In this document: positions 1-25,086 of the stretch, piece after piece
Layout of the letters: each line of letters opens with the position of its first letter
Position numbering within the stretch: position 1 is the first letter of the stretch
Assembly: GCF_000299035.1 (NCBI RefSeq)
Contig: NZ_JH921518.1
Span: 1 to 64,000, forward strand
DNA: 64,000 nt
Origin: Bacillus bingmayongensis
GTDB lineage: Bacteria; Bacillota; Bacilli; Bacillales; Bacillaceae_G
Direction of reading: 5' to 3'
Made by a program: the position numbers and the translations under genes
The notes under the pieces: generated by a model
Told to the model about the DNA's origin: nothing
Databases searched by the model: none
The model's input: only the letters and a program-made list of their open reading frames with translations

Positions 1-105
1 AGGGGGTATTTTGTTTTGTTAGCTTGATAGCGATGGGGTCTCGCCACAAATCCATCAACATTTAGGTGAATTTCTAAAAGCTATGTTAGGCACCAAGATT
101 AATAT

Positions 106-146
106 AAAAAAACAGGGTTCGTGGGGCGTTTTCCCTAGCGAACCCT
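106..146 (-). terminator. Rho-independent terminator downstream of the decarboxylase
   Basis: Arms GGGTTCG (115-121) and CGAACCC (139-145) can pair, with further inner G/C pairing. Read on the minus strand they are followed by seven T residues (complement of 106-112). It lies about 115 bases past the decarboxylase stop and probably ends the cluster transcript. The flanking bases 1-105 and 147-261 contain no gene I can support. Confidence 0.7.
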
Positions 147-261
147 TTTGCATTCATATGAAAAAACAAATCAAACAAGGATAAACAAACAATTTCCCCA
201 AATGATGCGTGACTCCTCAATCTTATGTTTCATCGTTAAAAACCACTTATTTCCCAGCATA

Positions 262-1716
262 TCAAAGTTGCGGAACTGAGATAAGATGTTTGTAAGATGT
301 GCTTACTTCCTCTGCCAATGCTTTGATTTTCATCATGATTTGAAGCATTTCTTCTGTTGTCGTCCTTGGGTTGATAGAACAAAGTCGAATAACCACTTTC
401 TCTTTCAATTCGGTCGTACTTAACATGGCAAATCCTCTGTGAGTAATTTCTTCCACCAGTTTTTTGTTTATTTCATTGATTGTATCTGTTGATGCTAATT
501 CACAAGGGATATAACGAAAAGTAACAATTCCTAACTGGGCAGGTGTTACCACCTCCCAATCTTTCGCTTTCCCTAAGAACGCTTCAACTTGTTCAGCCAA
601 CATGATGCCATGATCAATTGCTTGGCGAAAAGCTGCGACTCCAAACACTTTAAAAGACAGCCACACCTTTAACGCCCTAAATCTGCGCGAAAGTTCAATT
701 CCACATTCTCCAAAATTGATTTCTTCTTCTATATAGGTTTCCGTATCCTTGATATACTCTGGGATCATACGAAATGTTTTGCTTAAGTATTGGCTGTTTC
801 TAATGAGTACACAGCCTACATCATAAGGCTGAAAAAGCCATTTATGAGGGTCCAACGTCAAGGAATCGACACGATGAATTCCTTGAAGCAAAGCACTTCC
901 TTTTTCACTGAGAATTGCCGGGGCACCATAGGCTCCATCCGCATGTAGCCATACATCTTCGTCATTACAAAGATCAGCCAACTCATTGAGGGAATCAACC
1001 GCTCCGCAATTAGTTGTTCCAGCATTAGCAATGACACAGAATGGTTTTTTCCCTTTTGTTCGATCTTCTTTTATTTGCTTTTTCAAAGCACTGACTGAAA
1101 TTCGTAAATGTTCATCCGTTTCGATTCGGCAAATTTGATGGTGTTTGAAACCCAATACTTTTAGTGCCCGATCCACAGAAAAATGAGTCTGGTCGGAAAA
1201 ATAAACAACCGCATTATCTATGTCATTATTAAGCTTGACCTGTCTAGCTACATTAAGCGCGGTTAAATTAGCCATGGAACCTCCGCTTACAAATAGCCCT
1301 TCAGCCGAATCAGGGAATCCTAACATCGATTTTAACCAATTGATTGTCGTTAATTCGATTTGCTCAGCACCTGCGCCTACTATCCAAGCTGTCGGAAATA
1401 CATTAAATCCACTTGCTAAAAAATCTGCTACTACCCCAACATAATTATTGGGACCCGGCACAAAAGCCATAAAATGAGGATGATCCACATGGGTAATCTG
1501 ATTAAACACGTTCCTATTAAGAAAATGAAGGAGCTCTTTCGGATCGGATCCGTTTTCTGGGATTGATTCAGTCAGCTTGTTTCTGAGAATATCACTATCA
1601 ATCGTTTCAGATACTGGTTTGCTTTTCAAATGATTCATATGATCAATGATCATATCAACCGCTTGATATCCTAACTGACGCATCTCTTCGGCTGATAACT
1701 GCAGGTTTTCCGTCAC
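262..1716 (-). CDS. PLP-dependent aromatic-type L-amino acid decarboxylase
   Basis: Group II pyridoxal-phosphate decarboxylase of about 484 residues, the usual length for the aromatic amino acid / tyrosine decarboxylase family. Visible motifs are the N-terminal substrate segment HPHFMAFVPGPNNYVG, the cofactor-binding HADGAYG and the Schiff-base lysine in LTLDPHKW. It should turn an aromatic amino acid (Trp, Phe or Tyr; not decided by sequence) into its arylethylamine. A GTG start at 1716 is chosen because TAGGAG sits 8 bases upstream; the earlier GTG at 1725 abuts that Shine-Dalgarno and is unlikely. It is the last gene of the cluster, behind the synthetase and separated by a hairpin. By analogy with bacillamide biosynthesis the amine would be the nucleophile used by the terminal condensation domain; that link is inference. 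Confidence 0.9.
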   Translation of the reverse strand: MTENLQLSAEEMRQLGYQAVDMIIDHMNHLKSKPVSETIDSDILRNKLTESIPENGSDPKELLHFLNRNVFNQITHVDHPHFMAFVPGPNNYVGVVADFLASGFNVFPTAWIVGAGAEQIELTTINWLKSMLGFPDSAEGLFVSGGSMANLTALNVARQVKLNNDIDNAVVYFSDQTHFSVDRALKVLGFKHHQICRIETDEHLRISVSALKKQIKEDRTKGKKPFCVIANAGTTNCGAVDSLNELADLCNDEDVWLHADGAYGAPAILSEKGSALLQGIHRVDSLTLDPHKWLFQPYDVGCVLIRNSQYLSKTFRMIPEYIKDTETYIEEEINFGECGIELSRRFRALKVWLSFKVFGVAAFRQAIDHGIMLAEQVEAFLGKAKDWEVVTPAQLGIVTFRYIPCELASTDTINEINKKLVEEITHRGFAMLSTTELKEKVVIRLCSINPRTTTEEMLQIMMKIKALAEEVSTSYKHLISVPQL

Positions 1717-1739
1717 TTGTTTCACTCCTATTCTATTTT

Positions 1740-1765
1740 AAAAGGCGAGTTGTTGCTCGCCTTTT
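1740..1765 (-). terminator. Hairpin between synthetase and decarboxylase genes
   Basis: Perfect stem AAAGGCGAG (1741-1749) / CTCGCCTTT (1756-1764), followed on the minus strand by TTTTAAAAT. It fills most of the 55-base gap between the two genes and sits just before the decarboxylase ribosome binding site. It could partly terminate transcription so that less decarboxylase is made than synthetase, or protect the upstream mRNA 3' end. Confidence 0.65.
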
Positions 1766-1771
1766 CATTTT

Positions 1772-4700
1772 TTATAATTGGTAATCGCCGATCGTCTGTG
1801 TTGGATTATGAACAATCGTTTTAATTAACGTATGGAGGTGATTCAATATTTCCTGTACTTGCTCCGCTTCATAGATATTTTGATCATATCCAAACTTCAT
1901 TGTAAGTTTCTCTTCAGGGAAGCACATAATTCCGTACTTCACATGCGGCTCATCAACGACTTGGTAATCTGTGATGGCAAAATTTCTGTTCTCATTTGAA
2001 GAGAAAATGGATGGGTTAGTTGGATAGTTTTCAAACACCCAAAGATGGTCGGTCAACTGATCGTTCAACTCACTTTGTTTTTGAATCTCAACAAATGAAT
2101 AGTAAGCATACTCATTACATTTCAATGTTTCTTGTTGAACTTTTTGCAGGAGATCCACAAAAGATTGCGTTTCTTCCCAGGCTACTCGGATAGGCAAAAC
2201 ATTTGTGAACAGACCAAACATATTTTCAATCCCTTCCACTTTGGGAGGTCTGACCGATACCAGATTGGGTAATACTACTTCTTTCGTTCCATTGTATTTG
2301 CCAAGCAATATACCCCATACAGCTAGTAAAGCCGAATTCATGGTTACATGGTGTTTGGTTACAAATGTCTGTAACTGATTGGTCAGATCCTCATCTAACG
2401 TTAAATCCATAAATGTGAAGCTTAACCCTTTACTTTGAGTTGGTACTTTCTTTTTGGGAATGCTGATTTTCCGATTATACCCTGATAAATAATGGCGCCA
2501 AAAATGGCGTGCTTTCTCATGGTCTTGCGCTAAAGTCCAGTCAATGAATGCTTGAAAAGGCTTTGCTGGAGGTAATTCCACTGTAGTTCCCGCATTTTTC
2601 GCTTCATAAAGTTGGAATAATTCGTCTAACAAAATACTGACACTCCAACCATCACACAATAGATGATGGGCACTCCAAACTACCTTATACTCGGCATTGC
2701 CTAGTTGAAATACACAAAGACGGGTCATGAGTTCATCATTTTTGAATCCTCGATCTAAATTTTCACTCATCCACTGGTCCAAGCATTCCTGCTGCTCTTG
2801 TCTCGTCATCTCAATCAAGCTTTGTACCTCTGAAATCATTTGAACATCATGTAACACAGCTTGCCAAGGTTGTTCTTGTTCACCTTGCACAATGATCGTT
2901 CTTAGAGAATCATGACGATTAACTAATTGTTGAAAACACTGAGTAAAGAGATCTACATCCAGTTGCCCCTCAAGTGTCCAAATCGTTTGTTCAAAATAAG
3001 CATTGGTATCAGGTTCAGCTACAGCATGTTCATAAATAACTTGTTGGAAGGGTGCCAATGGATAGATTCGTTCTATTTTTATATCCGGCATTTTTTCTTG
3101 TATTTTGTTAAGCGTATGTTGATTAAGCTGTTTATCTCTAACATTCAGTGATGTAACTTTATTTTCTTTCTTTTTGTTTATATCGTCTGTTTGTGAGTGT
3201 AAAGGATGGTCTAGCCTCTTAACAAAATGAACCATGTCACCTAATATAGGGAAGGCAAATAGATTTTTTGGCTCTAACTGAAATCCTTGTCTATAAAGTC
3301 TTACAGAAACTTGAATGGCCTTAATCGAATCGCCACCCAAAGCAAAGAAATGATCATTTACTCCGATTTGGTCTACTTTGAGCACTTCTTGCCATACACT
3401 GGTCAATATTTTTTCCATTTCAGTTTTTGGAGCAATATACACATCATTTTTTTGTTTCTCCGGAGCAGGAAGCGCCTTTCGATCTAATTTTCCATTAGGG
3501 GTCAAGGGTAGTCGCTCCAAATAAACAAAATAAGAAGGGATCATGTACTCTGGCAAGTGGTCTCGCAAATGTTTTCGTAGTTCTTTTGTACTGATATCTT
3601 GCTCAGTTACCACATACGCGACTAAAAATTTTATCCCATTCTCATCTGTCTGGTCAATCACTACAGCTTGGTCTACTTGGTTGTAAGTGAGAAGGCAATG
3701 GGCGATCTCTTCTAACTCCACTCGATATCCTTGAATTTTGACTTGGTAATCTTGGCGTCCTAAAAATTCAATATATCCCTCGGGATGCATCCTGCCACAA
3801 TCCCCTGTCTTGTAAATAAGACCAAGGTCTGGATGTGACACAAACACTTCGTTCGTTTTCTGTTCATCATTCAAATATCCTTGAGCAAGACCCACTCCCC
3901 CAATATATAAATCACCGATCACACCAACTGGGCACATTTTCTTATCGTAGTTCAACACATAATACGTTTGGTTTGCCAAAGGCATCCCATATGGAATGCT
4001 GTTCCAGTGTGCTTCCACCTGTTTGACTGGATAATAAATCGACCAAATTGATGCTTCTGTTGCCCCTCCCAGTGAAATTACTTCCGCGATCGGGAAATGT
4101 CGTTTTATTTTTTCTGGTAAAGGGAGTGGAATCCAATCCCCACTATGTAAGACCAAACGCAAGGAAGAATTTTCAAAATGAGAACCTACCTGATCCAATG
4201 CCAAATCCATGATTGCAGGTACTGTATTCCAGATCGTAATTCCTCTGCGTTCGACCGTACGGATCAGCTCTTGCATGTCTCTCGGATCACGAATCATTAC
4301 CAACATTGCACCTGTACTTAACGCTCCAAAAATATCGTATACAGACAGGTCAAAACACATGGAGGAGATACCAATAATGCGATCGTCTTCATTCACCTGA
4401 TATTTTTGATTGATATCTTGAATGGTATTTGCAACCGCTTGGTGAGTAATGATCACTCCTTTTGGTTTTCCGGTACTTCCTGAAGTATAGATAATATAGG
4501 AAAGATCTTCCGGACCAGCAATGGTAGGCAGATCTTCGGTTGCATATAATGACAGATGTTTCTCTTCATAAAGACCAGGTTCCAACAAAAGTTTGCATGA
4601 GCTATTTTCTAAGATATATGTTTGTCGATCTGGTGGATGATCGGGATCGATAGGTACATAAGCAGCACCCGCTTTTAATATCCCCATCATATTAACAATC

Positions 4701-7700
4701 GTATCAACCCGTCTCTGTGCCAAAATACCAACTTTGTCACCTAGACCAATCCCTTGTTCTTGCAAATAGTGAGCAACTTGATTGGAGCGTTGATGAAGGT
4801 CCAAGTAAGTTAACCACTCTTGTTCAAAGACCACTGCCACTTGATCTGGTATACGTTGTACTTGGTCTGCAAACAATTGATACAGGGTAGTCGAAGGTAT
4901 TTTTTCTGTTGTCTGATTATACTGCTCAATTAAAGTCTGATCCGATTTTTTCACTTGCAAAGAGGTTACGTCTCTTTGTTTCACCAATTGTTCCAACAGA
5001 TCGACAAATTGAGAAAACATTGCTTCCATCACATCAACATCAAACAATTCTTCTACATAGTTCCAGCTAATCAATAACTCTCCATTTTTTTCAATTACCA
5101 CATTATCCAAATACACTTGTGGAGTCCGAGCGTGAATATGGTGGAGAGAGCCAAGCTGCTCCCAAGCAAAAGCACCCGCGCCTGCTAGCATCGAGGTGAA
5201 AACAATTGGCATGACTGCTTTTGGTCTCATTTGGTGATATCGAGTAAAATCTCGAATAAAGTTAACTCCATCATAATGACGATGTTCAAGTCCATCTAAT
5301 AAAGTCGATTGAGTTTGCTCCACTCTGGTAAAGAAAGATTCCTCTGGATTCACATTCACGTCCAACAAGATGAGTGAAGTGAAATCTCCCACAATCTGCT
5401 CTACTTCTTCATGAACAGGATAACGGTTAAATACAGTCAGATTCATTGCCAATCGATGTTGATTACTCCAATATGCCAACACTTCTCCATATATCGTACA
5501 AAGAAGTGCGGAAGGAGTTACTTCTTTCTCTTGTGCTAGCTTCCGTAACTTCGTCCATTTGTCTTTGTCCAAGATCTTAGTAAGTGATTGAAAGTTAGGG
5601 GTAGCAATCTCTGCTGGATCCTTTTTTAACAGCAGAGAAGGCGCAAATGGAAAGTCAGGCAGCTTACTTGTCCAATAATCTTTTGCTTTTTTATATTCTT
5701 TGCTTTGTTCCATTTCATCATAGATGAACATGTAATCTTGAAAATCAAAAGAAAGAGATTCCAATCTTTGATCTGGTTTGTGATAATAATGCAACAAATC
5801 ATGTCCAACGATGTTCATGCTTGCCCCGTCCATCAATAAAGCATCATATCGAAAACATAACAAATAAGTGTCTTCTTTTAAAAGAAAGGCTTTTAATTCA
5901 AACAAAGGCCATTGCCCCAAAGGAAATACATGGTTGGTCATTCGAGAACGTTCTTCTTGCAATCGAACATTTTGTTTCCCATCATCTAAACCAATGAGAT
6001 TTTCTATTTCAATCTGATAATCAGGAACGTCTTGTAAGATTTGCTGTTTTCCCTCTGGCAAGATCACAGCTCGTAACATAGGATGGCGCTGAATTACCTT
6101 TTGGAAACTTTGCGAAAGCCGATTGATATCCAATTTTGTTTCATATTCAAAATACGTTTGAGGTGAAATGCCGCTTAATTCAAACTGCGGATTACGCCCT
6201 AACATGTAAGCTGTCTGAACTTCTGTTAAGGAAAATGGCTTGGACAAATCTTTAACACGGGTTGGTGTTTTATCTAGGCTTTCTTCTTTCTGCTCCACTT
6301 CTACACAAGAACTAAGTTGAGCAATCGTGGGATGGTTAAAAATATCTCTTGTACTTACTTTCAGGTGGTCTTTTCCTAATAAATTGATAATCTGTAGTGT
6401 CTTAATCGACTCTCCTCCTAAGACAAAAAAGTTATCATGAATACCGATCCGCTCAATCTCCATCACTTTTTCCCATGCTTGCACCAATTTCTGTTCGATT
6501 TGATTTCGTGGGGCGACATATGGGGTGGATATTTGATCTGTTTGAGTTAAATCCAACAACCTTTTTCGATCCACTTTTCCATTTGGATTCAGTGGAATCT
6601 CTTTTACCTGAATCATTTTTTCGGGAATCATAAACTCAGGCAATTTATTGCTTAGATATTTTCTGAGCTTTTCAAAAGGGATCTTCTTATCCGATTGATA
6701 GTAAGCAGCTAACAATTTTCTATTTCCATCTACCTGATCAACAACAATAGCTCGGCTTATCTCTGGATGTCTCTTTAGCTGCGCCTCGATTTCCCCTATT
6801 TCAATCCGATATCCCCGTATTTTCACCTGATGATCCATTCGACCGAGATATTCAAGTTCTCCATTAGGTAACCATCGGACGAGATCACCAGTACGATACA
6901 TCATTTCTCCCGTCACAAAAGGATTCGGGACAAATTTTTCATCTGTCAATTTAGATTTGCCAAGATAACCTCGAGCTACCGCCACTCCGGCAATACCGAG
7001 CTCTCCCGGCATTCCCCAAGGTTTCATTTGACCATATTTATTTAATACATAAGAACGATAATTGGGATTAGGTTTCCCGATCGTCACTTCTTTGGCAGTA
7101 CTCAAATCTTTTACTGTTGCACAAATGGTTGTTTCTGTCGGACCATAGATATTTAAAATTTGCGCTTCGCTAATGCTTCGAATTTTTTCAATCAAATCAA
7201 TCGAAAATGCTTCTCCTGCTAACAAAATGGCCTTTAAATCTCTTAGAAACTCTGCCCCTTCTGGATCACTCAAAATCAATTCCATTCGCGATGGGGTCGA
7301 TTCCCATAAATCCACCTTATGTTCTTTGACCAAATGAGCCAATTCTTTTGTTGCAAACTGTCCCTCTGTAGCAATGACTACTTTCGAGCCTTGAGTTAAA
7401 GGGATACATATTTCTAACAGAGATATATCAAAAGAAACACTAGCAAGAAACAAGAACGACTGATTATCTTTTAGCTTTTCTCTCATAATGCTTAAGAAAT
7501 GGACGAGGGATCTCTGTTCCACCATTACGCCTTTTGGATTTCCTGTTGATCCTGATGTGTAAATAACATAAGCCAAATCATTAGGTTCACTTTCTCGATC
7601 TAGATTGCTTTCTTCACCTTGGAAGAGATGTTCCTCATCAAGATACAACACCTCACCGGAAAATTGCGGCAATTCTTTCTCTGTTCGCTTGCTCAGTAAC

Positions 7701-8815
7701 CATTTTGCTTGACTATCTTGTAACATATATTCAATTCGTTCACTGGGATAGTGAGGATCGATTGGTAGATAAGCCCCACCGGCTTTTAAAATCCCCATCA
7801 TGCCAATGATCATTTCCAATGATCGATCTACCATAACCCCAATAATACTTTCTTTGGATACACCCTTACTTTGAAGAACAGAAGCTAATTGATTTGCTTT
7901 CTTATTCAATTCTCTATATGTCAAAGATTGATCATTACAAATGACAGCAATTTGATCTGGGGTTTTCAACACTTGCTCCTCAAACAAATCCTGAAATGTT
8001 TGAGACAAGTCTATGCCCATCTGAACTTGACTAAATCCTTCTAGCAACTCTTTTTCTTCTTCCGAAATGATACTGATATCTTTCACAGCCAGATCAGGAT
8101 TTCTCAACACTTGCTCTAAAACATAAAGATAAGATTTGACAAACTGTTGCAAAGGAAAAAGAAAATGAGAATTGCAAGAAATTTGAAATTCAAATTCATT
8201 ATGTTTTTCATTCCATTTTCTTTGTATCCAGATGGCTAATTCATTCTCTGAGCATTCTTCTAGTGAACTCTTATTATGTAATCCTTCCATCCCCAAAACG
8301 ATTTGAAATGGATTTGAATAGAGCTTCGCTAATAATTCAGAGAGTGGATAACGCTGATTTTCATAACCAAGTAAAGTCGTTTGTTGGACCTGTTCCACTA
8401 CTTGCTTAAAGGAGTGATGGAGATGGATTTCAGTTCCTATAGGAAGCAAATCATTCAGATTCTCTCTTTGTTCGTGATCTTTTCCGATTACAGGAACCCC
8501 GATTGTGATCCTTTCTTGGTCTGTATAATGTACCAAGCAAACCCTTAAAGCAGCCTGTAACCAGCTAAATAAAAATACATCCTGTGACTTACTTACTTTT
8601 TGTAAACTTTGACTAAGCTCTGCATTCATTATGACTTGAACACGGTCGCATGGATTGTCTTTATTCATTTGATAACCGCTATTAAATAACGAAAAATCAG
8701 GTACATCGAAAGATAATTGCTCCTTCCAAAACGATTCTGCCACTTTATACTCATGAATCGAACTCCGATCTTTGATGTGCATTTTTATCTTTAGCCCCCT
8801 AACATTAATTTCCAT
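1772..8815 (-). CDS. Nonribosomal peptide synthetase, (half C)-A-PCP-Cy-A(Cys)-PCP-C
   Basis: A 2347-residue synthetase. Residues 1-265 resemble only the C-terminal half of a condensation domain and lack HHxxxDG. A1 spans about 275-765, with YTSGSTG and a specificity code read as D463-I-L-E-L-A-I-I (substrate unclear, perhaps a small residue). PCP1 has LGGES (Ser803). A heterocyclization domain (about 858-1290) has FSLTEVQTAYMLGR, RHPML, DALLMDG in place of HHxxxDG, VMPIVFTS and TPQVYLDN. A2 (about 1312-1785) has the code D1489-L-Y-N-L-S-L-I, the textbook cysteine code. PCP2 has LGGDS (Ser1830). The final condensation domain (about 1912-2347) keeps the intact motif HHLLCDG. There is no thioesterase or reductase. 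Expected chemistry: acyl/aminoacyl-Cys, cyclised to a thiazoline and released by attack of an amine. The oxidoreductase stop abuts this ATG (TAGATG), so translation is probably coupled; M12 (8782), preceded by AGGGGG, is an alternative start. Confidence 0.95.
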   Translation of the reverse strand: MEINVRGLKIKMHIKDRSSIHEYKVAESFWKEQLSFDVPDFSLFNSGYQMNKDNPCDRVQVIMNAELSQSLQKVSKSQDVFLFSWLQAALRVCLVHYTDQERITIGVPVIGKDHEQRENLNDLLPIGTEIHLHHSFKQVVEQVQQTTLLGYENQRYPLSELLAKLYSNPFQIVLGMEGLHNKSSLEECSENELAIWIQRKWNEKHNEFEFQISCNSHFLFPLQQFVKSYLYVLEQVLRNPDLAVKDISIISEEEKELLEGFSQVQMGIDLSQTFQDLFEEQVLKTPDQIAVICNDQSLTYRELNKKANQLASVLQSKGVSKESIIGVMVDRSLEMIIGMMGILKAGGAYLPIDPHYPSERIEYMLQDSQAKWLLSKRTEKELPQFSGEVLYLDEEHLFQGEESNLDRESEPNDLAYVIYTSGSTGNPKGVMVEQRSLVHFLSIMREKLKDNQSFLFLASVSFDISLLEICIPLTQGSKVVIATEGQFATKELAHLVKEHKVDLWESTPSRMELILSDPEGAEFLRDLKAILLAGEAFSIDLIEKIRSISEAQILNIYGPTETTICATVKDLSTAKEVTIGKPNPNYRSYVLNKYGQMKPWGMPGELGIAGVAVARGYLGKSKLTDEKFVPNPFVTGEMMYRTGDLVRWLPNGELEYLGRMDHQVKIRGYRIEIGEIEAQLKRHPEISRAIVVDQVDGNRKLLAAYYQSDKKIPFEKLRKYLSNKLPEFMIPEKMIQVKEIPLNPNGKVDRKRLLDLTQTDQISTPYVAPRNQIEQKLVQAWEKVMEIERIGIHDNFFVLGGESIKTLQIINLLGKDHLKVSTRDIFNHPTIAQLSSCVEVEQKEESLDKTPTRVKDLSKPFSLTEVQTAYMLGRNPQFELSGISPQTYFEYETKLDINRLSQSFQKVIQRHPMLRAVILPEGKQQILQDVPDYQIEIENLIGLDDGKQNVRLQEERSRMTNHVFPLGQWPLFELKAFLLKEDTYLLCFRYDALLMDGASMNIVGHDLLHYYHKPDQRLESLSFDFQDYMFIYDEMEQSKEYKKAKDYWTSKLPDFPFAPSLLLKKDPAEIATPNFQSLTKILDKDKWTKLRKLAQEKEVTPSALLCTIYGEVLAYWSNQHRLAMNLTVFNRYPVHEEVEQIVGDFTSLILLDVNVNPEESFFTRVEQTQSTLLDGLEHRHYDGVNFIRDFTRYHQMRPKAVMPIVFTSMLAGAGAFAWEQLGSLHHIHARTPQVYLDNVVIEKNGELLISWNYVEELFDVDVMEAMFSQFVDLLEQLVKQRDVTSLQVKKSDQTLIEQYNQTTEKIPSTTLYQLFADQVQRIPDQVAVVFEQEWLTYLDLHQRSNQVAHYLQEQGIGLGDKVGILAQRRVDTIVNMMGILKAGAAYVPIDPDHPPDRQTYILENSSCKLLLEPGLYEEKHLSLYATEDLPTIAGPEDLSYIIYTSGSTGKPKGVIITHQAVANTIQDINQKYQVNEDDRIIGISSMCFDLSVYDIFGALSTGAMLVMIRDPRDMQELIRTVERRGITIWNTVPAIMDLALDQVGSHFENSSLRLVLHSGDWIPLPLPEKIKRHFPIAEVISLGGATEASIWSIYYPVKQVEAHWNSIPYGMPLANQTYYVLNYDKKMCPVGVIGDLYIGGVGLAQGYLNDEQKTNEVFVSHPDLGLIYKTGDCGRMHPEGYIEFLGRQDYQVKIQGYRVELEEIAHCLLTYNQVDQAVVIDQTDENGIKFLVAYVVTEQDISTKELRKHLRDHLPEYMIPSYFVYLERLPLTPNGKLDRKALPAPEKQKNDVYIAPKTEMEKILTSVWQEVLKVDQIGVNDHFFALGGDSIKAIQVSVRLYRQGFQLEPKNLFAFPILGDMVHFVKRLDHPLHSQTDDINKKKENKVTSLNVRDKQLNQHTLNKIQEKMPDIKIERIYPLAPFQQVIYEHAVAEPDTNAYFEQTIWTLEGQLDVDLFTQCFQQLVNRHDSLRTIIVQGEQEQPWQAVLHDVQMISEVQSLIEMTRQEQQECLDQWMSENLDRGFKNDELMTRLCVFQLGNAEYKVVWSAHHLLCDGWSVSILLDELFQLYEAKNAGTTVELPPAKPFQAFIDWTLAQDHEKARHFWRHYLSGYNRKISIPKKKVPTQSKGLSFTFMDLTLDEDLTNQLQTFVTKHHVTMNSALLAVWGILLGKYNGTKEVVLPNLVSVRPPKVEGIENMFGLFTNVLPIRVAWEETQSFVDLLQKVQQETLKCNEYAYYSFVEIQKQSELNDQLTDHLWVFENYPTNPSIFSSNENRNFAITDYQVVDEPHVKYGIMCFPEEKLTMKFGYDQNIYEAEQVQEILNHLHTLIKTIVHNPTQTIGDYQL

Positions 8816-9793
8816 CTATTCGCTAATTTTTAACCCAACTTCAATCCCGTGGAGAAATACTTGATGGTTATCCAAACTTAAAAAGCGATGAATATCCTCA
8901 AATTTCATATGCCCAACGGAACAAACTCCCAAGTTTAATGTCTCAGCTACCATATTTAACGTAGCAGTGATGATGCCTGATTCAATGCAAGAAAATAAAT
9001 ATCCATCTGAACCATATTTAGGCATGGAAGCGCGCGCATTATAGACTAGATAAACCGAAAAGGCAGACTGGGTAAATAATTCCTGGTTAATCATCTCATG
9101 ATCACTCTTGATTACTTGGTCAATGTTGTTTACCAACAAAAGACTATTCTCTGATGGGCTATAATAATAAAAACCAGCTTTCATACCTTCTACACGTTTC
9201 GGTTTTATATAGACAAAAATATCAATGGGATAAACTCCACCCGCACTGGCGTAATGGTAGTAGATTTTTTCTTCTTTCCTCTGTTTTAAAGTAGAAAACA
9301 GTTGCCCGAATTCTGAAAAAGGTACAGGATTTTTCATATCAAATTGGCGGCAAGATCTACGCTCCCTGATCATGGCAGGAAGTTCATCTTTTGTTTCAAG
9401 TTGAATTCCGGTTGACCTCGCAGCGGGATGCATTCGATTTAATTGTTCACTGATATACTTATCTAGATCATCTTTAGAGAAGCGAATCTGATCGCTATAT
9501 GGATTCGGAAAAATTTTTTCTTGTGTGGAGAATACTTCTCTTGGATGTAATATGTTACTTACTAACACCCGATTCTTTATCATAAGTTCTACTATTTTTT
9601 GTGCCTCTTCTTCATTCCCTAACGAAAAGCGCTCTAATAGCTGACTGATCGTCACCCCCTTTTGGGCAAGAAAATAAAACTCAGGAAACCACTCAGACAT
9701 AACTCCTGTATATCTCGTTTCTCCTATCAAAACTTCATTATGCAACTTCTCCCAATGCTTAATAGGAGACCAATAATAAATTTGCTCGCTCAT
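8816..9793 (-). CDS. SagB-type FMN-dependent dehydrogenase (putative thiazoline oxidase)
   Basis: About 325 residues: an N-terminal segment of roughly 95 residues resembling the extra domain of peptide-modifying oxidases, then a nitroreductase-fold domain with RERRSCRQF (FMN phosphate binding), SAGGVYPIDIFVY and a C-terminal LNLGVCSVG segment, all typical of the SagB family. SagB enzymes oxidise azoline rings to azoles using FMN. Directly upstream of a synthetase with Cy and Cys-activating domains, thiazoline to thiazole oxidation is the natural assignment (inference). Start placed at 9793, where GGAGGGG lies just upstream; an in-frame ATG at 9805 overlaps that Shine-Dalgarno. The stop codon abuts the synthetase ATG. 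Confidence 0.88.
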   Translation of the reverse strand: MSEQIYYWSPIKHWEKLHNEVLIGETRYTGVMSEWFPEFYFLAQKGVTISQLLERFSLGNEEEAQKIVELMIKNRVLVSNILHPREVFSTQEKIFPNPYSDQIRFSKDDLDKYISEQLNRMHPAARSTGIQLETKDELPAMIRERRSCRQFDMKNPVPFSEFGQLFSTLKQRKEEKIYYHYASAGGVYPIDIFVYIKPKRVEGMKAGFYYYSPSENSLLLVNNIDQVIKSDHEMINQELFTQSAFSVYLVYNARASMPKYGSDGYLFSCIESGIITATLNMVAETLNLGVCSVGHMKFEDIHRFLSLDNHQVFLHGIEVGLKISE

Positions 9794-9857
9794 ATTCCCC
9801 TCCATAAAAGGTTAATTTTTTTAAAAATACAATCTTCCAATCCACAAAAAACGACCT

Positions 9858-10202
9858 TTATATAGGACATAATTGTTGAAATTCATACCATTTGTCATAA
9901 ATAAGTTTCCATCCTGTTACTATTTGGCCTTGTTCACTACCAGCTGTGGGTGTAAAATAATACCAAATCCCTTTAATGGATTGCCAATCTTTTTGCACAA
10001 GTCCATTCCTATAGTAATACCACTTTCCATTATCTTGATACCACCCATCTGTTGGAGCAGCTTAAACTGATTGCTTTACAAGTTTACTAAAATTTGTTGT
10101 AGTTTCAGCTACAGCTATTCCATTGATAGACGTCAACAAAATAGTTGACGTACATAATACAGATAAAGAACATCTCATACAATAAACCATTCCCCTTCTC
10201 AT
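9858..10202 (-). pseudogene. Broken small secreted cell-wall-binding-repeat protein
   Basis: A signal-peptide-like start (MRCSLSVLCTSTILLT, then AVAET) is followed by a TAA at 10062-10064. In the same frame after the stop come AAPTDGWYQDNGKWYYY, WQSIKGIWYYF and TGWKLIYDKWYEF, which are glucan/choline-binding type wall-anchoring repeats, ending at a second stop at 9858. The original product was therefore a short exported wall-binding protein now split by one nonsense codon. The precise start (10202, 10190 or 10178) is uncertain. It lies immediately upstream of the oxidoreductase gene and may mark the edge of the inserted cluster. Confidence 0.6.
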
Positions 10203-10445
10203 ATTTATTTTTCGAAAACTCGCAATAATAAGAATAATGTATAAATCCCCAAATGTCAGTGAGAAAAAGTGAGAATATGTTGAGAATAAAATGTCAGAAT
10301 ATTCGTTTGTAATTTCACATCCTCTATAAGAGGTCACCATACATCACTATCAACCTAAGATAAATTTATATCCATAATTCATAGAAAACACAAACTTAGC
10401 TTGATGGGCATGTGTGGTGAATCCCTATCAATAAAAAAAGATTGA

Positions 10446-10474
10446 TTGACAAGAAATTTTTAAAATATTAACAT
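10446..10474 (+). promoter_or_regulatory. Sigma-A type promoter before the monooxygenase locus
   Basis: TTGACA (10446-10451), a 17-base spacer and TAACAT (10469-10474) form a good sigma-A-like promoter pointing toward the flavin monooxygenase at 10731. Transcription would begin around 10481, inside the inverted repeat that follows. Confidence 0.5.
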
Positions 10475-10479
10475 TGATT

Positions 10480-10528
10480 TATCATTTAATGACCGTAGTC
10501 ATAAAATGAACAAAGTCATTAAATGATA
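10480..10528. promoter_or_regulatory. 14-bp perfect inverted repeat, candidate operator
   Basis: TATCATTTAATGAC (10480-10493) and GTCATTAAATGATA (10515-10528) are exact inverted copies separated by 21 bases, and an inner TCAT/ATGA pair lies in the spacer. It starts a few bases after the predicted -10 box, so it overlaps the likely transcription start and leader. Either a repressor (the TetR gene at 12396 is the obvious local candidate) binds here, or the leader RNA folds into a hairpin. Between here and 10730 I see only a possible 17-codon reading frame near 10542 and nothing else. Confidence 0.55.
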
Positions 10529-10730
10529 ATACATTAAGAGAATGATGCAAAAAGAATTGAAAAGGACATTCTTTTACAAGCAACACAGTGACTAAAAAAA
10601 TAAGTCTACGAGAAGATGTCCACTCAAGCAGTTTTGAAATTTTACGTTTTGATCCAAGTTCTTAATACTTTATTGCTTCTCTCTTTATGAATTACTTAAT
10701 CATTAAAAGAATTAATGGAGGGGAAAATGA

Positions 10731-11861
10731 ATGCATAACATTATCATTATTGGTGGTGGCATTGCTGGTCTTTCCGCAGCGATTGCCTTTCAAAAAATGG
10801 GTTTAGATGTAAAAGTATTTGATAAAAATAACGAGCCCACTGTTGCTGGCGCAGGTATTATTATTGCCCCCAATGCTATACAAGCACTGGAACCATACGG
10901 TATTTCTGATCAAATAAAGCGAGTTGGAAACGAAAGTGATGGCTTTCATTTATTATCTGAAAAAGGGAAAACTCTTAACAAATTAATGATTCCAACTTCT
11001 TATCCAAAAATGTATTCCATTCATAGAAAGGATTTACATCAATTGCTGTTATCCTCTCTGCATCCTGACACAGTTGAATGGGGAAAAGAATGTATACAGG
11101 TTGAACAAAATAATGAAGATACTGTACAAATACGTTTTCGTGATGGAAGTAAGATTAAAGGCAACATAGCGATTGCAGCAGACGGGATTCATTCTCTTAT
11201 TCGAAAGCAGCTATCGCATAGTGATTATCGTTTTTCCGGATATACGTGTTGGCGTGGCGTAATCTCCTCTAAAACTCTTTCCTTAGCGAACGATTTCATT
11301 GAAACTTGGGGTACAAAAGGACGGTTCGGTATTGTTCCACTGCCTAACAATCAAGTATATTGGTATGCTTTAATAAACTCACAAGCTAATGACGCAAGAT
11401 TTGCCGCATACACAATTGATGATTTGTATAACCACTTTAAAAATTATCATGATCCTATCCCAAACATTTTGAAACACGCTAAGCAACACAAAATGATTCA
11501 CCGCGATATCATGGATATTGTTCCCATGAAGCAGTTTTTTGACAAACGTGTTGTGCTTATAGGGGATGCAGCACATGCACTTACTCCTAATTTAGGACAG
11601 GGAGCTTGTCAAGCAATTGAAGATGCTAGAATTCTCACAGAATGTATTCAAAAAAATAGCGACTATCACCAAGCATTTATGGAGTATGACAAAAAAAGAA
11701 GAAACAGAGTTGAGAAGATTTCTAATCAGGCCTGGACAGTTGGTAAGCTAGCACAACTGGAAAGTAAAGCTTTAACTGTGCTAAGAGATCAAGTAATGAA
11801 ACATACACCTAGATGGATTTCTGAAAAACAAGCACATGATTTATATAAATTTGAAGTTTAA
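10731..11861 (+). CDS. FAD-dependent monooxygenase (salicylate hydroxylase-like)
   Basis: A 376-residue class A flavoprotein monooxygenase. The N-terminus has the dinucleotide-binding motif IIIGGGIAGLSAA, a central AADGIHS corresponds to the DG motif, and GDAAHALTPNLGQGACQA is the second FAD-ribityl motif. No signal peptide, so cytosolic. The family hydroxylates aromatic or polyketide-like small molecules using NAD(P)H and oxygen; the substrate cannot be read from the sequence. Start supported by GGAGGGG 9 bases upstream. It heads a plus-strand group with a lipoprotein and a TetR regulator, which suggests an inducible detoxification or resistance function. Confidence 0.88.
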   Translation: MHNIIIIGGGIAGLSAAIAFQKMGLDVKVFDKNNEPTVAGAGIIIAPNAIQALEPYGISDQIKRVGNESDGFHLLSEKGKTLNKLMIPTSYPKMYSIHRKDLHQLLLSSLHPDTVEWGKECIQVEQNNEDTVQIRFRDGSKIKGNIAIAADGIHSLIRKQLSHSDYRFSGYTCWRGVISSKTLSLANDFIETWGTKGRFGIVPLPNNQVYWYALINSQANDARFAAYTIDDLYNHFKNYHDPIPNILKHAKQHKMIHRDIMDIVPMKQFFDKRVVLIGDAAHALTPNLGQGACQAIEDARILTECIQKNSDYHQAFMEYDKKRRNRVEKISNQAWTVGKLAQLESKALTVLRDQVMKHTPRWISEKQAHDLYKFEV

Positions 11862-11883
11862 AAAATAAAATGTGGTGAAGAAA

Positions 11884-12330
11884 ATGAAAACATATACATA
11901 TTTACTTTTTTCAACTCTATTACTTTTCTGTATGATAGGGTGTTCTTCTTCAGCATCCACTAAAGAAAAAGGAAAAGTGCCATTAATTACGTTTAAAACT
12001 GAAGAAATAACTACCGTCAAACTGCTTGATGTAAAAGAGAATAATAAGCTAAAAACAGAAATCAATGATACCGTGTTTATCGGACAAATGATTAAGTCAA
12101 TTAAAAAGGGTACTTCTAAAGAAATATCTTTAAATAAACAAACTAGAGATTCTGTAAGTACTAAAATGGAACTTTTATCTAACAAATCAAAAGAAACTTT
12201 ATTAATATGGATAAATGATAATGATACAATTACAATAGCAAAAGATACAAATCAAAATACTACCCAAGGGATTCAAATACAACATGATTTTCAGACGCCA
12301 ATGATCGTGGTAAATTTTTCAAAACAATAA
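11884..12330 (+). CDS. Small lipoprotein of unknown function
   Basis: About 148 residues beginning MKTYTYLLFSTLLLF, then a lipobox-like MIGC followed by a Ser-rich linker, so it should be exported and lipid-anchored at the cysteine. The mature part is Lys/Thr/Asn-rich, mostly predicted beta strand, with no family I recognise. It starts 22 bases after the monooxygenase stop and is probably co-transcribed. The start at 11884 is preferred because the hydrophobic signal begins there and GGTGAAG precedes it. Confidence 0.7.
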   Translation: MKTYTYLLFSTLLLFCMIGCSSSASTKEKGKVPLITFKTEEITTVKLLDVKENNKLKTEINDTVFIGQMIKSIKKGTSKEISLNKQTRDSVSTKMELLSNKSKETLLIWINDNDTITIAKDTNQNTTQGIQIQHDFQTPMIVVNFSKQ

Positions 12331-12395
12331 GAACAAGATTTATTTTGAGGTTAATCAATAAACAGCTATAATTGTATTTGTTAGGAGTAGATTAT

Positions 12396-12986
12396 ATGCT
12401 AAGAGAAACTAGAAAAAAAGAATTAAAAGAACTCATTTTCCTACAAGCAATACAACTATTTAAAGAACATGGATATGAGAATGTAACGGTTCAAGATATC
12501 ACTGCTACATGTGGTATTGCAAAAGGAACTTTTTTTAACTACTTTGCGAAAAAAGAACATATTTTGTTATTTTTAGGGGATTCTCAAATTGAATTATGGA
12601 ATGAAAGCATACAAACTTATCAGAATGTCGAGCATCCAAAAGAACAAATTCAGCTTATGTTAGGTGATTTATTATCTAGATTTACTGAACATGGCGAGCT
12701 CATGAAGCATGCAGTATTTGAAATTATTAAATCAAATTATTTAGTTGAAAACGAGCTGAAAAGTATTCAAAAACTACAAGGAAGTTTGCATTCCATTATT
12801 GAGCATGCAAAACAGAAAGGCAAACTAAAAAGCACATGGGACACAAGTATCATTACTTCCACTATTATGAGTGTCTATTTTTATACACTATTGTCTCAAT
12901 CGTTATTACATTCCCATGAAACTAATATTAGAGATATGCTTAACCAGCAATTAGATGTCGTATGGGAGGGAATTAATAAAGAATAA
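12396..12986 (+). CDS. TetR/AcrR family transcriptional regulator
   Basis: About 196 residues. The N-terminal helix-turn-helix reads HGYENVTVQDITATCGIAKG followed by TFFNYFAKKEHIL, the hallmark of TetR regulators; the rest is an all-helical ligand and dimerisation domain. ATG at 12396 is used because TAGGAG lies 8 bases upstream; an upstream TTG at 12372 precedes the Shine-Dalgarno. It closes the monooxygenase/lipoprotein group and plausibly represses it through the inverted repeat at 10480-10528, which is inference from position only. Confidence 0.88.
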   Translation: MLRETRKKELKELIFLQAIQLFKEHGYENVTVQDITATCGIAKGTFFNYFAKKEHILLFLGDSQIELWNESIQTYQNVEHPKEQIQLMLGDLLSRFTEHGELMKHAVFEIIKSNYLVENELKSIQKLQGSLHSIIEHAKQKGKLKSTWDTSIITSTIMSVYFYTLLSQSLLHSHETNIRDMLNQQLDVVWEGINKE

Positions 12987-12994
12987 GGTGAAAA

Positions 12995-13040
12995 AAATAG
13001 CCCTTCACTTGACCCAAAAAGGCTAAGTGAAGGGCTATTT
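12995..13040. terminator. Bidirectional terminator
   Basis: A 16-bp perfect stem, AAATAGCCCTTCACTT (12995-13010) with its complement (13025-13040), is flanked by A and T runs. It ends the TetR transcript; the minus-strand ssbB message may also stop here. Confidence 0.85.
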
Positions 13041-13142
13041 TCTTTATTTCATATGGTTTTCACATATTAAAGATTCAACACTTTGAAAAAGAACTGTATT
13101 ATATATAATTTGCATACTTTCACTATTTTCTTACCGCTTGCT

Positions 13143-13481
13143 TTACCGTGAAGCCCCCTCTCTCTTCCGCTCCAAAAACGTAATCCTTTCAATCACAACT
13201 TCTGTTTTATACACCCTCTCTCCCTGCTCATTATCGTAATTACTCGTATGAATACGACCCGTAATCCCAACAAGCGATCCCTTCTGGCAATACTCTGACA
13301 CATTTTCAGCGGATTTTCTCCAGACGACGCAGTAAATGTAGTCAGCTTGCTGTTCCCCTAAGCTATTTCGAAATCCTCTATTTACCGCGACGCATATACG
13401 TGCATAGGCAATTCCTTGCTTTGTATAGTATAGTTCCGGATCTTTTGTCAACCTTCCGATTAATACAACTCGATTCATCAT
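13143..13481 (-). CDS. ssbB: Single-stranded DNA-binding protein, SsbB-like
   Basis: 112 residues: a complete OB-fold (NRVVLIGRLTKDPELYY, then YIYCVVWRKSAENV) ending right after the fold, without the acidic glycine-rich tail and DDDIPF-like tip of the replicative SSB. This length and form match Bacillus SsbB (113 residues in B. subtilis), which acts in natural transformation. GAGGTGG precedes the ATG at 13481; the second Met is an alternative start. The function in transformation is taken from the family. Confidence 0.85.
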   Translation of the reverse strand: MMNRVVLIGRLTKDPELYYTKQGIAYARICVAVNRGFRNSLGEQQADYIYCVVWRKSAENVSEYCQKGSLVGITGRIHTSNYDNEQGERVYKTEVVIERITFLERKREGASR

Positions 13482-13599
13482 ATTTATACCACCTCACATT
13501 TTTTCTTCATTGTAGAGAAAAATAAAAAATAGGTAAAAACCGTAAAATGGTATATTTCTAAAAAGAAATCATAGCTTTAAATCTAATAAAATAAAAAAA

Positions 13600-13632
13600 G
13601 AAATGCTGCATGATTGAATCATGCAGCATTTC
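13600..13632. terminator. Bidirectional terminator
   Basis: A perfect stem, GAAATGCTGCATGATT (13600-13615) with its complement (13617-13632), is flanked by an A run on the left and TT on the right. It lies just past the stop of the minus-strand gene at 13661. Confidence 0.8.
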
Positions 13633-13660
13633 TTAAAATGTTTACACTTCGCTACTTCAC

Positions 13661-13915
13661 TTATACCTCACTGCAAGATATATAATATCCTCCACGAGCC
13701 ATCCGTATATCCACTTGATACAATGTATTTTCTAGATAAAAAGTAATCGGCTTTACTTTACTTTCAAATTTAAGTTTTTCCTTAGAGTCAGTAGCATATG
13801 TCTCAATAGCAGCACAAATGGTTTCAACAGATGGATAAGTCAAAGCTTCATCTAATTCAATAAAAAAGCTTTTTCCTAATAGTTTTTTTAATAGCCCTTT
13901 CTTTTCTTTCATCAT
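13661..13915 (-). CDS. Small hypothetical protein (84 residues)
   Basis: A cytosolic protein starting MMKEKKGLLKKLLGK, with mixed charged and aromatic content and a C-terminal beta-rich stretch (FYLENTLYQVDI, GGYYISC). The start at 13915 is preferred because GGAGG lies 7 bases upstream; a longer frame from 13945 would overlap that Shine-Dalgarno. It stands alone between two terminators. I do not recognise the family. Confidence 0.6.
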   Translation of the reverse strand: MMKEKKGLLKKLLGKSFFIELDEALTYPSVETICAAIETYATDSKEKLKFESKVKPITFYLENTLYQVDIRMARGGYYISCSEV

Positions 13916-14035
13916 AAGCTCTCCTCCTTCACCACAAATTAACAATTATCACCACATTAACCATCCATATTATACCATAACCATAAACTCTTCTTGGTCT
14001 AAAAACATCAATTACCTTAAATCTAAAAAACACAA

Positions 14036-14070
14036 AGAAATCCTGCATGTTTCAAACATGCAGGATTTCT
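14036..14070. terminator. Bidirectional terminator
   Basis: AAATCCTGCATGTTT pairs with AAACATGCAGGATTT around a one-base centre and is flanked by A and T runs. It terminates the minus-strand membrane protein gene that ends at 14076. Confidence 0.8.
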
Positions 14071-14075
14071 TTCAA

Positions 14076-14807
14076 TTAGTCATTTTTCGTAAAGTAAGAA
14101 ACGAAACGAAGAATTTCTAAGTATAACCATACTAGAGTCAACATTAAACCCATTGCACCGTACCACTCCATGTATTTTGGAGCTCCGCTGCGTGCACCGC
14201 TTTCGATTAAATCGAAGTCTAGTAATAAATTTAATGCAGCAACAACAATAACAACTGCACTAATGATAATACCAATTGTTCCACCTTGATGAATATACGG
14301 CACAGTAACACCAAACATGTTTAATAGGAATACGATTAAGTACATAATCATAATTCCAAACGTTGCAGCCATTACACCTGTGCGGAATTTATCAGTTACT
14401 TTTACTACGCGAGTTGCATATAAAACTAACATTGCAAATAAAATTGAAACTGTTAGTAATACAGCATTTAAAACGATAGAATCACCAAAACGCATTGTAT
14501 AAAACGCTGAGATGCTTCCTAATACAACACCTTCTACTGCCGCATAAATCGGTGCAGTAATTGGCGAGATACGTGGAAAGAACATAGACGCAAACGCGAT
14601 GATTGCAGCGACAATTAAAGAGCCAATTAAAACAGGCATTTTCATTGTACCTTGCATCATCTGTATGTATGAATAGACAGACGTTGCAAGAAGCAAAATA
14701 AGCATAATGAATGTTTTGCCTACTGCTCCGCCAATTGTCATCGTAGATGCACTTGCTCCCTCTTTACGAAATGCCTCTTTGTTCAACATTGGATTAGATG
14801 TTCTCAT
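14076..14807 (-). CDS. Bax inhibitor-1/YccA family integral membrane protein
   Basis: 243 residues with a short soluble N-terminus and seven hydrophobic segments, ending in YLEILRFVSYFTKND. The hydrophobic pattern and the conserved C-terminal DFDLIESGARSGAPKYMEWY segment place it in the Bax inhibitor-1/YccA superfamily, whose characterised Bacillus member (YetJ) is a pH-sensitive calcium leak channel. The start is supported by AGGAGGG 6 bases upstream. It is monocistronic between a terminator and the ABC-F gene. Ion specificity is not shown by the sequence. Confidence 0.85.
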   Translation of the reverse strand: MRTSNPMLNKEAFRKEGASASTMTIGGAVGKTFIMLILLLATSVYSYIQMMQGTMKMPVLIGSLIVAAIIAFASMFFPRISPITAPIYAAVEGVVLGSISAFYTMRFGDSIVLNAVLLTVSILFAMLVLYATRVVKVTDKFRTGVMAATFGIMIMYLIVFLLNMFGVTVPYIHQGGTIGIIISAVVIVVAALNLLLDFDLIESGARSGAPKYMEWYGAMGLMLTLVWLYLEILRFVSYFTKND

Positions 14808-14882
14808 TTTTTCCCTCCTAAAATAGGTTCTACTAATAGTGTAAAGTTTTTCTCTTTACATTTCAATATATGCAGCTTGTTT

Positions 14883-16775: not shown

Positions 16776-17419
16776 ATTTGTGCATTCCACTCTTTCATAA
16801 ATTGTTCTATAAACTCTTCCATATAGCGATGACGAACTTCAGCCTCTCGCTTCGCAGCATCTGTATTCATTAAATCTTTCAACTTTAAAAGTTTTTCATA
16901 AAAATGATTTAACGATGGGTCACTATTTTTTCGATACTCTTCTTTCGTCATTTCTTCACGCGGTGGAATATTCGGGTCATACATTAAACGCCCTTTTGCA
17001 CCGCCGTAAGCAAACGTGCGAGCAATACCAATGGCACCAAGTGCATCTAAACGATCTGCATCTTGAACAATTTTCCCTTCCAATGTTTCTACATTACCAC
17101 CATGTCCACCTTTATAAGACATATTTGCAATAATATGAAGGATATGTTCCTTTTCTTCTTCAGTAACATCTAATCCTTCTAACCAATCAGAAACTTTTTT
17201 CATACCAGCTTCTTCACTTTCATTTAACTTCTCATCCGCTACATCGTGAAGTAAAGCTGCCATCTCAATTACAAAACGATCCCCACCTTCTTTTTCAGAC
17301 AAAGAAATCGCTAATTTATGTACACGTTCAATGTGATACCAATCATGTCCACTGGCATCTTTTTCTAAAATATTTTTTACAAAGCCGACTGTTTTTTGTA
17401 TTTGTTCTTGTTTTTTCAT
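16772..17419 (-). CDS. HD-domain phosphohydrolase (YpgQ-like)
   Basis: 215 residues with the HD signature: HDWYHIERV supplies the first histidine and ALLHDVAD the HD dyad, followed later by VQDADRLDALG. This order matches the small single-domain HD enzymes such as B. subtilis YpgQ, a metal-dependent nucleotide pyrophosphohydrolase. It overlaps the ABC-F gene by four bases, so the two are translationally coupled. The substrate is inferred from the family. Confidence 0.85.
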   Translation of the reverse strand: MKKQEQIQKTVGFVKNILEKDASGHDWYHIERVHKLAISLSEKEGGDRFVIEMAALLHDVADEKLNESEEAGMKKVSDWLEGLDVTEEEKEHILHIIANMSYKGGHGGNVETLEGKIVQDADRLDALGAIGIARTFAYGGAKGRLMYDPNIPPREEMTKEEYRKNSDPSLNHFYEKLLKLKDLMNTDAAKREAEVRHRYMEEFIEQFMKEWNAQI

Positions 17420-17528
17420 TTATCTTCACCCAATTCCTTATTGTAACACGCTCTCATTTTTTCATCACATATTTTCTTGTCTGCCCATAGACTGTTTTGT
17501 ACGTACGATTATGAAGGAGGAAATAAAT

Positions 17529-21984: not shown

Positions 21985-22331
21985 CAATAAAGTTGTTTAA
22001 AAAACTCCAGTCATGTTATTCAACAATCGGGCCATTTAATTGAATAAAACTTGGATATTTATTTTAATAAATAAGATTGTGAAGAAATGTACTTAAGCAA
22101 CGGGGCAGGTTAGCACAATAAACCAATGCGTAATAGTGGATAATTTTCACATTAATATTGAGTTGTAAGGCAAAATTTAATTATATAGATAAGAATTATT
22201 ATATTAGTTAGGAGATAAAAATGATAGCATCAGCAATTCTGGAAGTATCTTGAAAACAAATTGATACATGTTTGAAAGGTAAAAACACTCACAAATGTGT
22301 ACTATTTGTGAGTGTTTCTTTTGTAAAGAGA

Positions 22332-23288: not shown

Positions 23289-23318
23289 TTTAACACCCCT
23301 ATTTGTAATTGTTTTCAA

Positions 23319-25037: not shown

Positions 25038-25049
25038 CAACATTACATA

Positions 25050-25086
25050 AAGGCAGAAAACGATTTTTCGTTTTCTGCCTTTTATT
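25050..25086 (+). terminator. Rho-independent terminator
   Basis: AGGCAGAAAACGA pairs with TCGTTTTCTGCCT and is followed by TTTATTTT. Confidence 0.85.

What the first reader, a model, noticed from the sequence alone, without database searches (positions are those of the whole stretch)
262..9805. Compact bacillamide-like thiazole-amide biosynthetic cluster
Seen: a SagB-type oxidoreductase, an NRPS (half C)-A-PCP-Cy-A-PCP-C with a cysteine code DLYNLSLI and Cy motif DxxxxD, and an aromatic-type PLP decarboxylase, in one minus-strand cluster of under 10 kb. Known: bacillamides are aminoacyl-thiazole amides of tryptamine made by this enzyme set in other Bacillales. Inference: this B. cereus group locus makes an X-thiazole-arylethylamide, X set by A1 (code DILELAII, not one I can assign).
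Basis: partly seen in the sequence, partly recalled or inferred. Interest (0 to 1): 0.85.

Follow-up and report, generated by a model that had tools for sequence, protein, structure and literature searches.

The report
Known bacillamide D gene cluster
This is the already described three-gene assembly line for bacillamide D, a small thiazole compound built from alanine, cysteine and tryptophan; the only fresh detail is that the block has moved between bacterial genera and carries the stub of a lost neighbouring gene.

Summary
9805-8816 (-) encodes the BmdC-type thiazoline oxidase, 8815-1772 (-) the BmdB synthetase (half C)-A-PCP-Cy-A-PCP-C, and 1725-262 (-) the BmdA decarboxylase. All three are orthologues of the bacillamide set: 69-73% aa to a Laceyella cluster nearly identical to the solved BmdB/BmdC, and 93-96% to Bacillus atrophaeus and Priestia endophytica. 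Catalytic and contact residues are conserved. So this is known and ordinary.

Added here: the block (53-9872) shares 94-96% DNA identity with those two genera in unrelated flanks, so it moved horizontally. In Priestia and Laceyella an antiporter/flavoprotein pair sits beside bmdA; the window keeps the flavoprotein's last 18 codons. In 4 of 4 genomes inspected the pair lies beside NRPS genes, so it may be a lost accessory. Its function is untested, and the host species could not be confirmed.

The parts
8816..9805 (-). bmdC: FMN-dependent thiazoline oxidase (SagB/nitroreductase domain; N-terminal region aligned to the RRE-like part of BmdC)
   Evidence: phmmer to solved BmdC 7ly7/7ly6 E 8.5e-156 over residues 3-327; SagB model; FMN and catalytic residues R149, R150, S151, R153, N240, Y264, G298 (BmdC R145, R146, S147, R149, N236, Y260, G294) conserved in 4 of 4 sequences
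1772..8815 (-). bmdB: NRPS (half C)-A1-PCP1-Cy2-A2-PCP2-C3
   Evidence: Pfam; BmdB module 2 structure 1860 bits; 70% aa to Laceyella, 93% to P. endophytica and 95% to B. atrophaeus
8036..8815 (-). N-terminal half condensation domain (C-terminal lobe only), the least conserved part (48% to Laceyella; dN/dS about 0.5 against the two close relatives)
   Evidence: Pfam profile 189-455 of 456
6536..8035 (-). A1, code DILELAIICK, predicted alanine
   Evidence: same code in L002 and L003; L001 differs at one position, DILELAILCK
6266..6508 (-). PCP1 (GGESI)
4922..6250 (-). Cy2 heterocyclisation domain, DALLMD
   Evidence: 5t3e bacillamide Cy domain 816 bits
3446..4921 (-). A2, code DLYNLSLIWK, cysteine; carries the oxidase-docking arginines R1523/R1524
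3206..3433 (-). PCP2 (GGDSI)
1775..3103 (-). C3 terminal condensation domain (HHLLCDG), predicted to release the product onto tryptamine
1740..1765 (.). hairpin between bmdB and bmdA, terminator- or attenuator-like
   Evidence: -14.7 kcal/mol, z -6.4, 0 of 200 shuffles; L002 -14.7, L003 -19.2 (0 of 200 each), L001 weaker, -11.3 (4 of 200)
262..1725 (-). bmdA: PLP-dependent aromatic amino acid (tryptophan) decarboxylase, predicted PLP lysine Lys295
   Evidence: Pyridoxal_deC 2.5e-72; 96% to B. atrophaeus, 73% to Laceyella; DPHKWL
115..145 (-). terminator-like hairpin downstream of bmdA
   Evidence: sequence and fold, -20.3 kcal/mol, 1 of 200 shuffles as good; also present in P. endophytica
53..106 (+). 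last 18 codons of a convergent flavoprotein gene that is full length in P. endophytica
   Evidence: 121 of 129 aligned columns identical over 53-178, which includes this stretch
53..9872 (.). horizontally shared block: P. endophytica 95.1% over 173-9872 and 93.8% over 53-178; B. atrophaeus 96.2% over 296-9872; unrelated flanks; GC 38.5% against 34.2% for 9873-64000

Best explanation
It is the bacillamide (bmdA-bmdB-bmdC, 'bac') cluster and makes bacillamide D (Ala-thiazole-tryptamide). A1 loads alanine on PCP1 and A2 loads cysteine on PCP2. Cy2 joins them and closes the thiazoline; BmdC, docked on A2, oxidises the PCP2-bound thiazoline to thiazole with FMN. BmdA turns tryptophan into tryptamine, and C3 uses tryptamine to release the product. 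This pathway is shown experimentally for orthologues (T. vulgaris in vitro; B. cereus DSM 28590 genes in E. coli) and inferred here by orthology, order and conserved residues. The cluster has moved horizontally between genera (shown by comparison), and its form here probably descends from one that also carried an antiporter/flavoprotein pair (inferred from an 18-codon stub).
For: Orthology of all three genes; Laceyella oxidase and NRPS module 2 nearly identical to solved BmdC and BmdB; A1 and A2 codes identical to that proxy; BmdB R1512/R1513 and BmdC D225/D231 contacts and the FMN residues checked are conserved; gene sizes and order equal the published 9.5-kb DH-NRPS-DC cluster, including a 55-base gap with a terminator if bmdA is read from its second GTG; product and frequency in the group reported in PMC11133360 and reconstitution in PMC8795117; purifying selection, dN/dS 0.19-0.25 against the two close relatives.
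Against: No product was measured for this strain. A domains of the B. atrophaeus enzyme are reported to accept several amino acids including proline (passage in PMC9774924), so minor congeners are possible. The DSM 28590 sequence itself could not be compared, and module 1 of the T. vulgaris BmdB was not compared directly: the A1 argument goes through Laceyella.
Confidence: 0.95

Rival explanations
1. Same machinery, different acyl residue: A1 has drifted to another amino acid, giving a non-alanine bacillamide such as a proline congener.
For: Relaxed A-domain selectivity and bacillamide F are reported for B. atrophaeus C89; A1 is 74% identical to the Laceyella proxy.
Against: All ten code positions of A1 are identical to that proxy and to P. 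endophytica; the cluster from B. cereus DSM 28590 gave two new substances in E. coli, tryptamine and bacillamide D.
Confidence: 0.04
2. A ribosomal (TOMM-type) or aureusimine-like pathway, the SagB-like oxidase belonging to something else.
For: SagB-family model hit; AusA is the second-listed NCBIfam hit of the synthetase.
Against: AusA score 1098 against a cut-off of 2500; no YcaO or other azole-peptide gene among the Pfam hits of the 12 proteins scanned in 262-17419; the oxidase is a BmdC orthologue with the A2-docking aspartates.
Confidence: 0.01

Closest known systems
bac cluster of Bacillus cereus DSM 28590 (Hohmann et al. 2024, PMC11133360)
   Same: Gene order DH-NRPS-DC, 9.5 kb, sizes 1/7/1.5 kb, predicted terminator between NRPS and DC; product bacillamide D
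bmdABC of Thermoactinomyces vulgaris F-5595 (Fortinez et al. 2022, PMC8795117; PDB 7ly4-7ly7)
   Same: Domain order, A2-BmdC contacts, FMN site; both A codes through the Laceyella proxy
   Different: About 30% of residues (by the Laceyella proxy); in Laceyella an antiporter and a flavoprotein follow bmdA, of which the window keeps only a stub of the flavoprotein
bmd clusters of Bacillus atrophaeus (L001) and Priestia endophytica (L002)
   Same: 93-96% aa, 94-96% DNA over the shared block
   Different: Different flanks; P. endophytica keeps the antiporter/flavoprotein pair and has a phosphopantetheinyl transferase gene nearby; B. atrophaeus homology ends within the last codons of bmdA

Membership tests
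Bacillamide (bmd/bac) cluster | oxidase, NRPS and decarboxylase genes adjacent in that order | tested here: met
   same order in L001-L003
Bacillamide (bmd/bac) cluster | NRPS A1-PCP1-Cy2-A2-PCP2-C3 with catalytic motifs | tested here: met
Bacillamide (bmd/bac) cluster | A2 specific for cysteine | tested here: met
   code DLYNLSLIWK equal to L003, whose module 2 is nearly identical to solved BmdB; activity itself not assayed
Bacillamide (bmd/bac) cluster | A1 specific for alanine | tested here: met
   code DILELAIICK equal to L003, proxy of the reconstituted BmdB; activity itself not assayed
Bacillamide (bmd/bac) cluster | BmdC FMN site, Tyr260 and A2-docking residues | tested here: met
Bacillamide (bmd/bac) cluster | BmdA decarboxylates tryptophan | tested here: inconclusive
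   PLP decarboxylase orthologue, 96% to B. atrophaeus; substrate not derivable from sequence
Bacillamide (bmd/bac) cluster | product bacillamide D ([M+H]+ 315.14) | not testable with these tools
   needs LC-MS
Aureusimine AusA | full-length AusA model score above its cut-off | tested here: not met
   1098 bits, cut-off 2500

The most novel reading that the evidence does not exclude
The three-gene bacillamide cluster is a trimmed form of a larger travelling unit. A CPA2 cation antiporter and a Pyr_redox_3/FMO-like flavoprotein, convergent to bmdA in Priestia endophytica and Laceyella (81-82% aa between the two, against 67-71% for the bmd genes of the same pair), would be lost accessory parts of the pathway. 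The flavoprotein might oxidise the free amine of bacillamide D towards the keto and hydroxy forms (bacillamides A and B, isolated from B. endophyticus), or the pair might protect the producer. The window would be a derived cluster that kept only an 18-codon stub and so makes bacillamide D alone.
Probability: 0.2. Interest if true: 0.5.

Novelty: already known. Interest (0 to 1): 0.15.

Why it matters
As a cluster it adds little: structure, mechanism, product and frequency in the B. cereus group are in print. The useful additions are the resolved A1 code, clear evidence of transfer between genera, and a testable lead on which genes may make bacillamides A and B; in the passages and sections I read no enzyme for their keto or hydroxy group was named.

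Tried and rejected
Tried without yield: naming the host by solved structures of window proteins (only distant relatives), by plasmid and phage records and by 397 genomes of B. atrophaeus's order. Rfam at gathering score on 1-13000: nothing. BmdC in IMG/VR: nothing; in plasmids only distant SagB-like genes, 7 records, each under 60% identity. Promoter-like sites in 1-10800 (22) were fewer than in shuffles (33.1, sd 5.1) and terminator-like sites (8) about equal to them (7.0, sd 2.8), so no promoter is claimed; the bmdB-bmdA hairpin rests on its fold and on its presence in relatives. My first A1 code listing used a wrong index for one position (G for A); one search corrects it. The genome scan returned only 3 loci and none from the B. 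cereus group, against a report of about two thirds of that group carrying the cluster, so that collection seems to lack the group and I draw no conclusion on distribution from it.

Rejected: ribosomal or aureusimine-type pathway; carriage of the cluster by a phage or plasmid (no close relative found in those collections). A flavoprotein role in bacillamide A/B is only a hypothesis. Against it: Laceyella has the pair too, while bacillamide D was first found in a Thermoactinomyces strain; the pair also lies in NRPS loci other than bmd; and B. atrophaeus has the cluster without the pair beside it. A 34% match of the flavoprotein in Nonomuraea gerenzanensis (two places) was not inspected and is not in my 4 of 4. 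Literature searches beyond those cited: listings only apart from the papers named; one search was too broad to tell anything.

Full report
What is there. The minus strand of 9805-262 holds three adjacent genes: a 329-aa SagB/nitroreductase-type oxidase, a 2347-aa NRPS and a 487-aa PLP decarboxylase. The NRPS reads half C, A, PCP, Cy, A, PCP, C: the first condensation stretch covers only profile positions 189-455 of 456 and has no HHxxxDG, the second carries DALLMD, the third HHLLCDG.

What it is. Against the Protein Data Bank the oxidase hits BmdC (E 8.5e-156) and the NRPS hits BmdB module 2 (1860 bits) and the bacillamide Cy domain 5t3e (816 bits). A genome scan with the oxidase returned three loci: Bacillus atrophaeus (L001), Priestia endophytica (L002) and Laceyella sacchari (L003). 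All three genes are present in each, in the same order, at 93-96% (L001, L002) and 69-73% (L003) identity. The L003 oxidase aligns to solved BmdC over 323 residues with, by my count in the printed alignment, two differences, and the L003 NRPS module 2 aligns to solved BmdB over 1008 residues at 2317 bits with only a few differences in the part printed. L003 is therefore used as proxy for the T. vulgaris pathway that was rebuilt in vitro (PMC8795117: abstract, introduction, discussion and two of three parts of the results read; further passages). Module 1 of T. vulgaris BmdB itself was not compared.

Specificity and mechanism. The A1 code is DILELAIICK in the window, L002 and L003, and DILELAILCK in L001; the A2 code is DLYNLSLIWK in all four. 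Code positions were placed by motif and by comparison of A1 with A2; the positions themselves and the reading of the A2 code as cysteine are recalled and rest on no call. BmdC residues for FMN (R145, R146, S147, R149, N236, G294), the catalytic Y260 and the docking D225 and D231 are conserved in 4 of 4 sequences, as are BmdB R1512 and R1513. The chemistry is therefore most likely that of bacillamide D: Ala on PCP1, Cys on PCP2, cyclisation by Cy2, oxidation on PCP2 by BmdC, release by C3 with tryptamine from BmdA. The relaxed A-domain selectivity reported for B. atrophaeus C89 (passages of PMC9774924) leaves room for minor congeners.

What is known. PMC11133360 (abstract and sections 6, 7, 10-12 and 38 read, further passages by term) describes a 9.5-kb DH-NRPS-DC cluster from B. 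cereus DSM 28590 that yields bacillamide D and tryptamine in E. coli, and states that it is in about two thirds of sequenced B. cereus-group genomes. The 55-base NRPS-DC gap with a predicted terminator described there equals the distance here if bmdA starts at its second GTG (46 bases to the first). A hairpin of -14.7 kcal/mol lies in it (0 of 200 shuffles as good); the L002 and L003 gaps fold as well or better (0 of 200 each) and that of L001 less well (4 of 200). PMC5686519 (passages) reports bacillamide clusters in 45.7% of public and 42.8% of AgBiome strains and detected the mass in 58% of the strains tested that were predicted to make it. The finding is thus known.

Movement. DNA identity between window and L001 runs from 9872 to 296 (96.2%), and between window and L002 from 9872 to 53 in two pieces (95.1% and 93.8%); a blastn of window 1-14000 found no other match in either locus apart from one 47-base internal match in L001. 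dS for the three genes is 0.08-0.15 against both species, with dN/dS of 0.19-0.25; for one host gene (ABC-F, 14883-16790) dS is 2.8 or saturated and identity 64% and 57-58%. Between the two named genera themselves, the bmd proteins are 91-95% identical and the ABC-F protein 53%. Other window proteins searched in G001-G003: DEAD-box helicase 53% and 51% in two, none at the limit in the third; alanine racemase 44-52%, perhaps not orthologous; formate-THF ligase and Bax-inhibitor-like protein without a match. GC is 38.5% in 53-9872 and 34.2% in 9873-64000. So the block moved between genera; direction and vehicle are unknown. [quoted passage not shown] A search for 'bacillamide' with 'horizontal gene transfer' listed five papers, of which I saw only the listing apart from passages of PMC5686519.

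A stub of a lost neighbour. In L002 and L003 a convergent pair follows bmdA: a CPA2 antiporter and a 515- to 525-aa Pyr_redox_3/FMO-like flavoprotein (families run on the P. endophytica copies), 82% and 81% identical between the two genera, against 67-71% for the three bmd proteins of the same two loci. The window keeps 53-106, the last 18 codons of the flavoprotein, and the frame before it meets a stop at 20-22; what lies beyond base 1 cannot be seen. The flavoprotein was found at E <= 1e-60 in 2 of 397 genomes of P. endophytica's order (P. endophytica and unnamed G370 at 58%) and in 2 of 23 genomes of Laceyella's family (Laceyella and unnamed G467 at 63%). In G370 and G467 the antiporter is adjacent too, near NRPS and ketosynthase-like genes other than bmd (those genes named by eye from the translations), so in 4 of 4 carriers inspected the pair lies in an NRPS neighbourhood. 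A plasmid-collection search gave one further record, Nonomuraea gerenzanensis at 34%, not inspected. The pair is therefore not specific to bacillamide. Bacillamides A, B and C are reported from B. endophyticus (PMC2996175 passage); that this is the former name of P. endophytica is from memory. No paper in the library holds both 'bacillamide' and 'antiporter'. A role of the pair in making or surviving bacillamides is a hypothesis only.

The half C domain. It is the least conserved part (48% to L003 against 66-80% for other domains) and has the highest dN/dS of the five domains computed (about 0.5 against L001 and L002, 0.21 against L003), which suits a remnant under weak constraint; PMC8795117 lists the domains of BmdB without it.

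Limits. The host was not identified; no product was measured; the genome collections used seem to lack the B. cereus group.

Noticed in passing
MW302330.1 (L017-L019), similar to window 10482-17600 and 24100-29050: The record named Stenotrophomonas phage TS-12 looks largely like a Bacillus-type chromosome piece (monooxygenase, ABC-F, HD, sporulation gene, glutathione peroxidase), with phage structural genes from about 52 kb on; it is 75-86% identical in DNA to the window over the longer shared stretches, and blastn found nothing in it for window 1-10481, so it has no bmd block.
   Followed up: partly
window 9870-10340 (-): Small secretion-signal-like ORF closed by a stop at 10062; the stretch up to the bmd block edge at 9872 looks like repeats of a cell-wall-binding protein by eye, as if the block had landed in or next to it.
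   Followed up: no
window 22002-23421: Alpha/beta hydrolase region 90.5% identical in DNA to a Priestia megaterium plasmid, NZ_CP058267.1, possibly a second exchange with Priestia.
   Followed up: no
L020:10860-13721, L021:10846-13919, L025:8368-11187, L031:7545-10560: Antiporter/flavoprotein pair near NRPS genes in 4 of 4 genomes inspected that carry the flavoprotein; a possible general accessory of NRPS clusters.
   Followed up: partly
L020:9401-10096: 4'-phosphopantetheinyl transferase superfamily gene near the P. endophytica cluster; none was looked for in the window.
   Followed up: no
window 59654-64000: Genes that look, by eye only, like a meta-cleavage (catechol) operon: semialdehyde dehydrogenase, hydratase/decarboxylase pair, acetaldehyde dehydrogenase and aldolase.
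   Followed up: no
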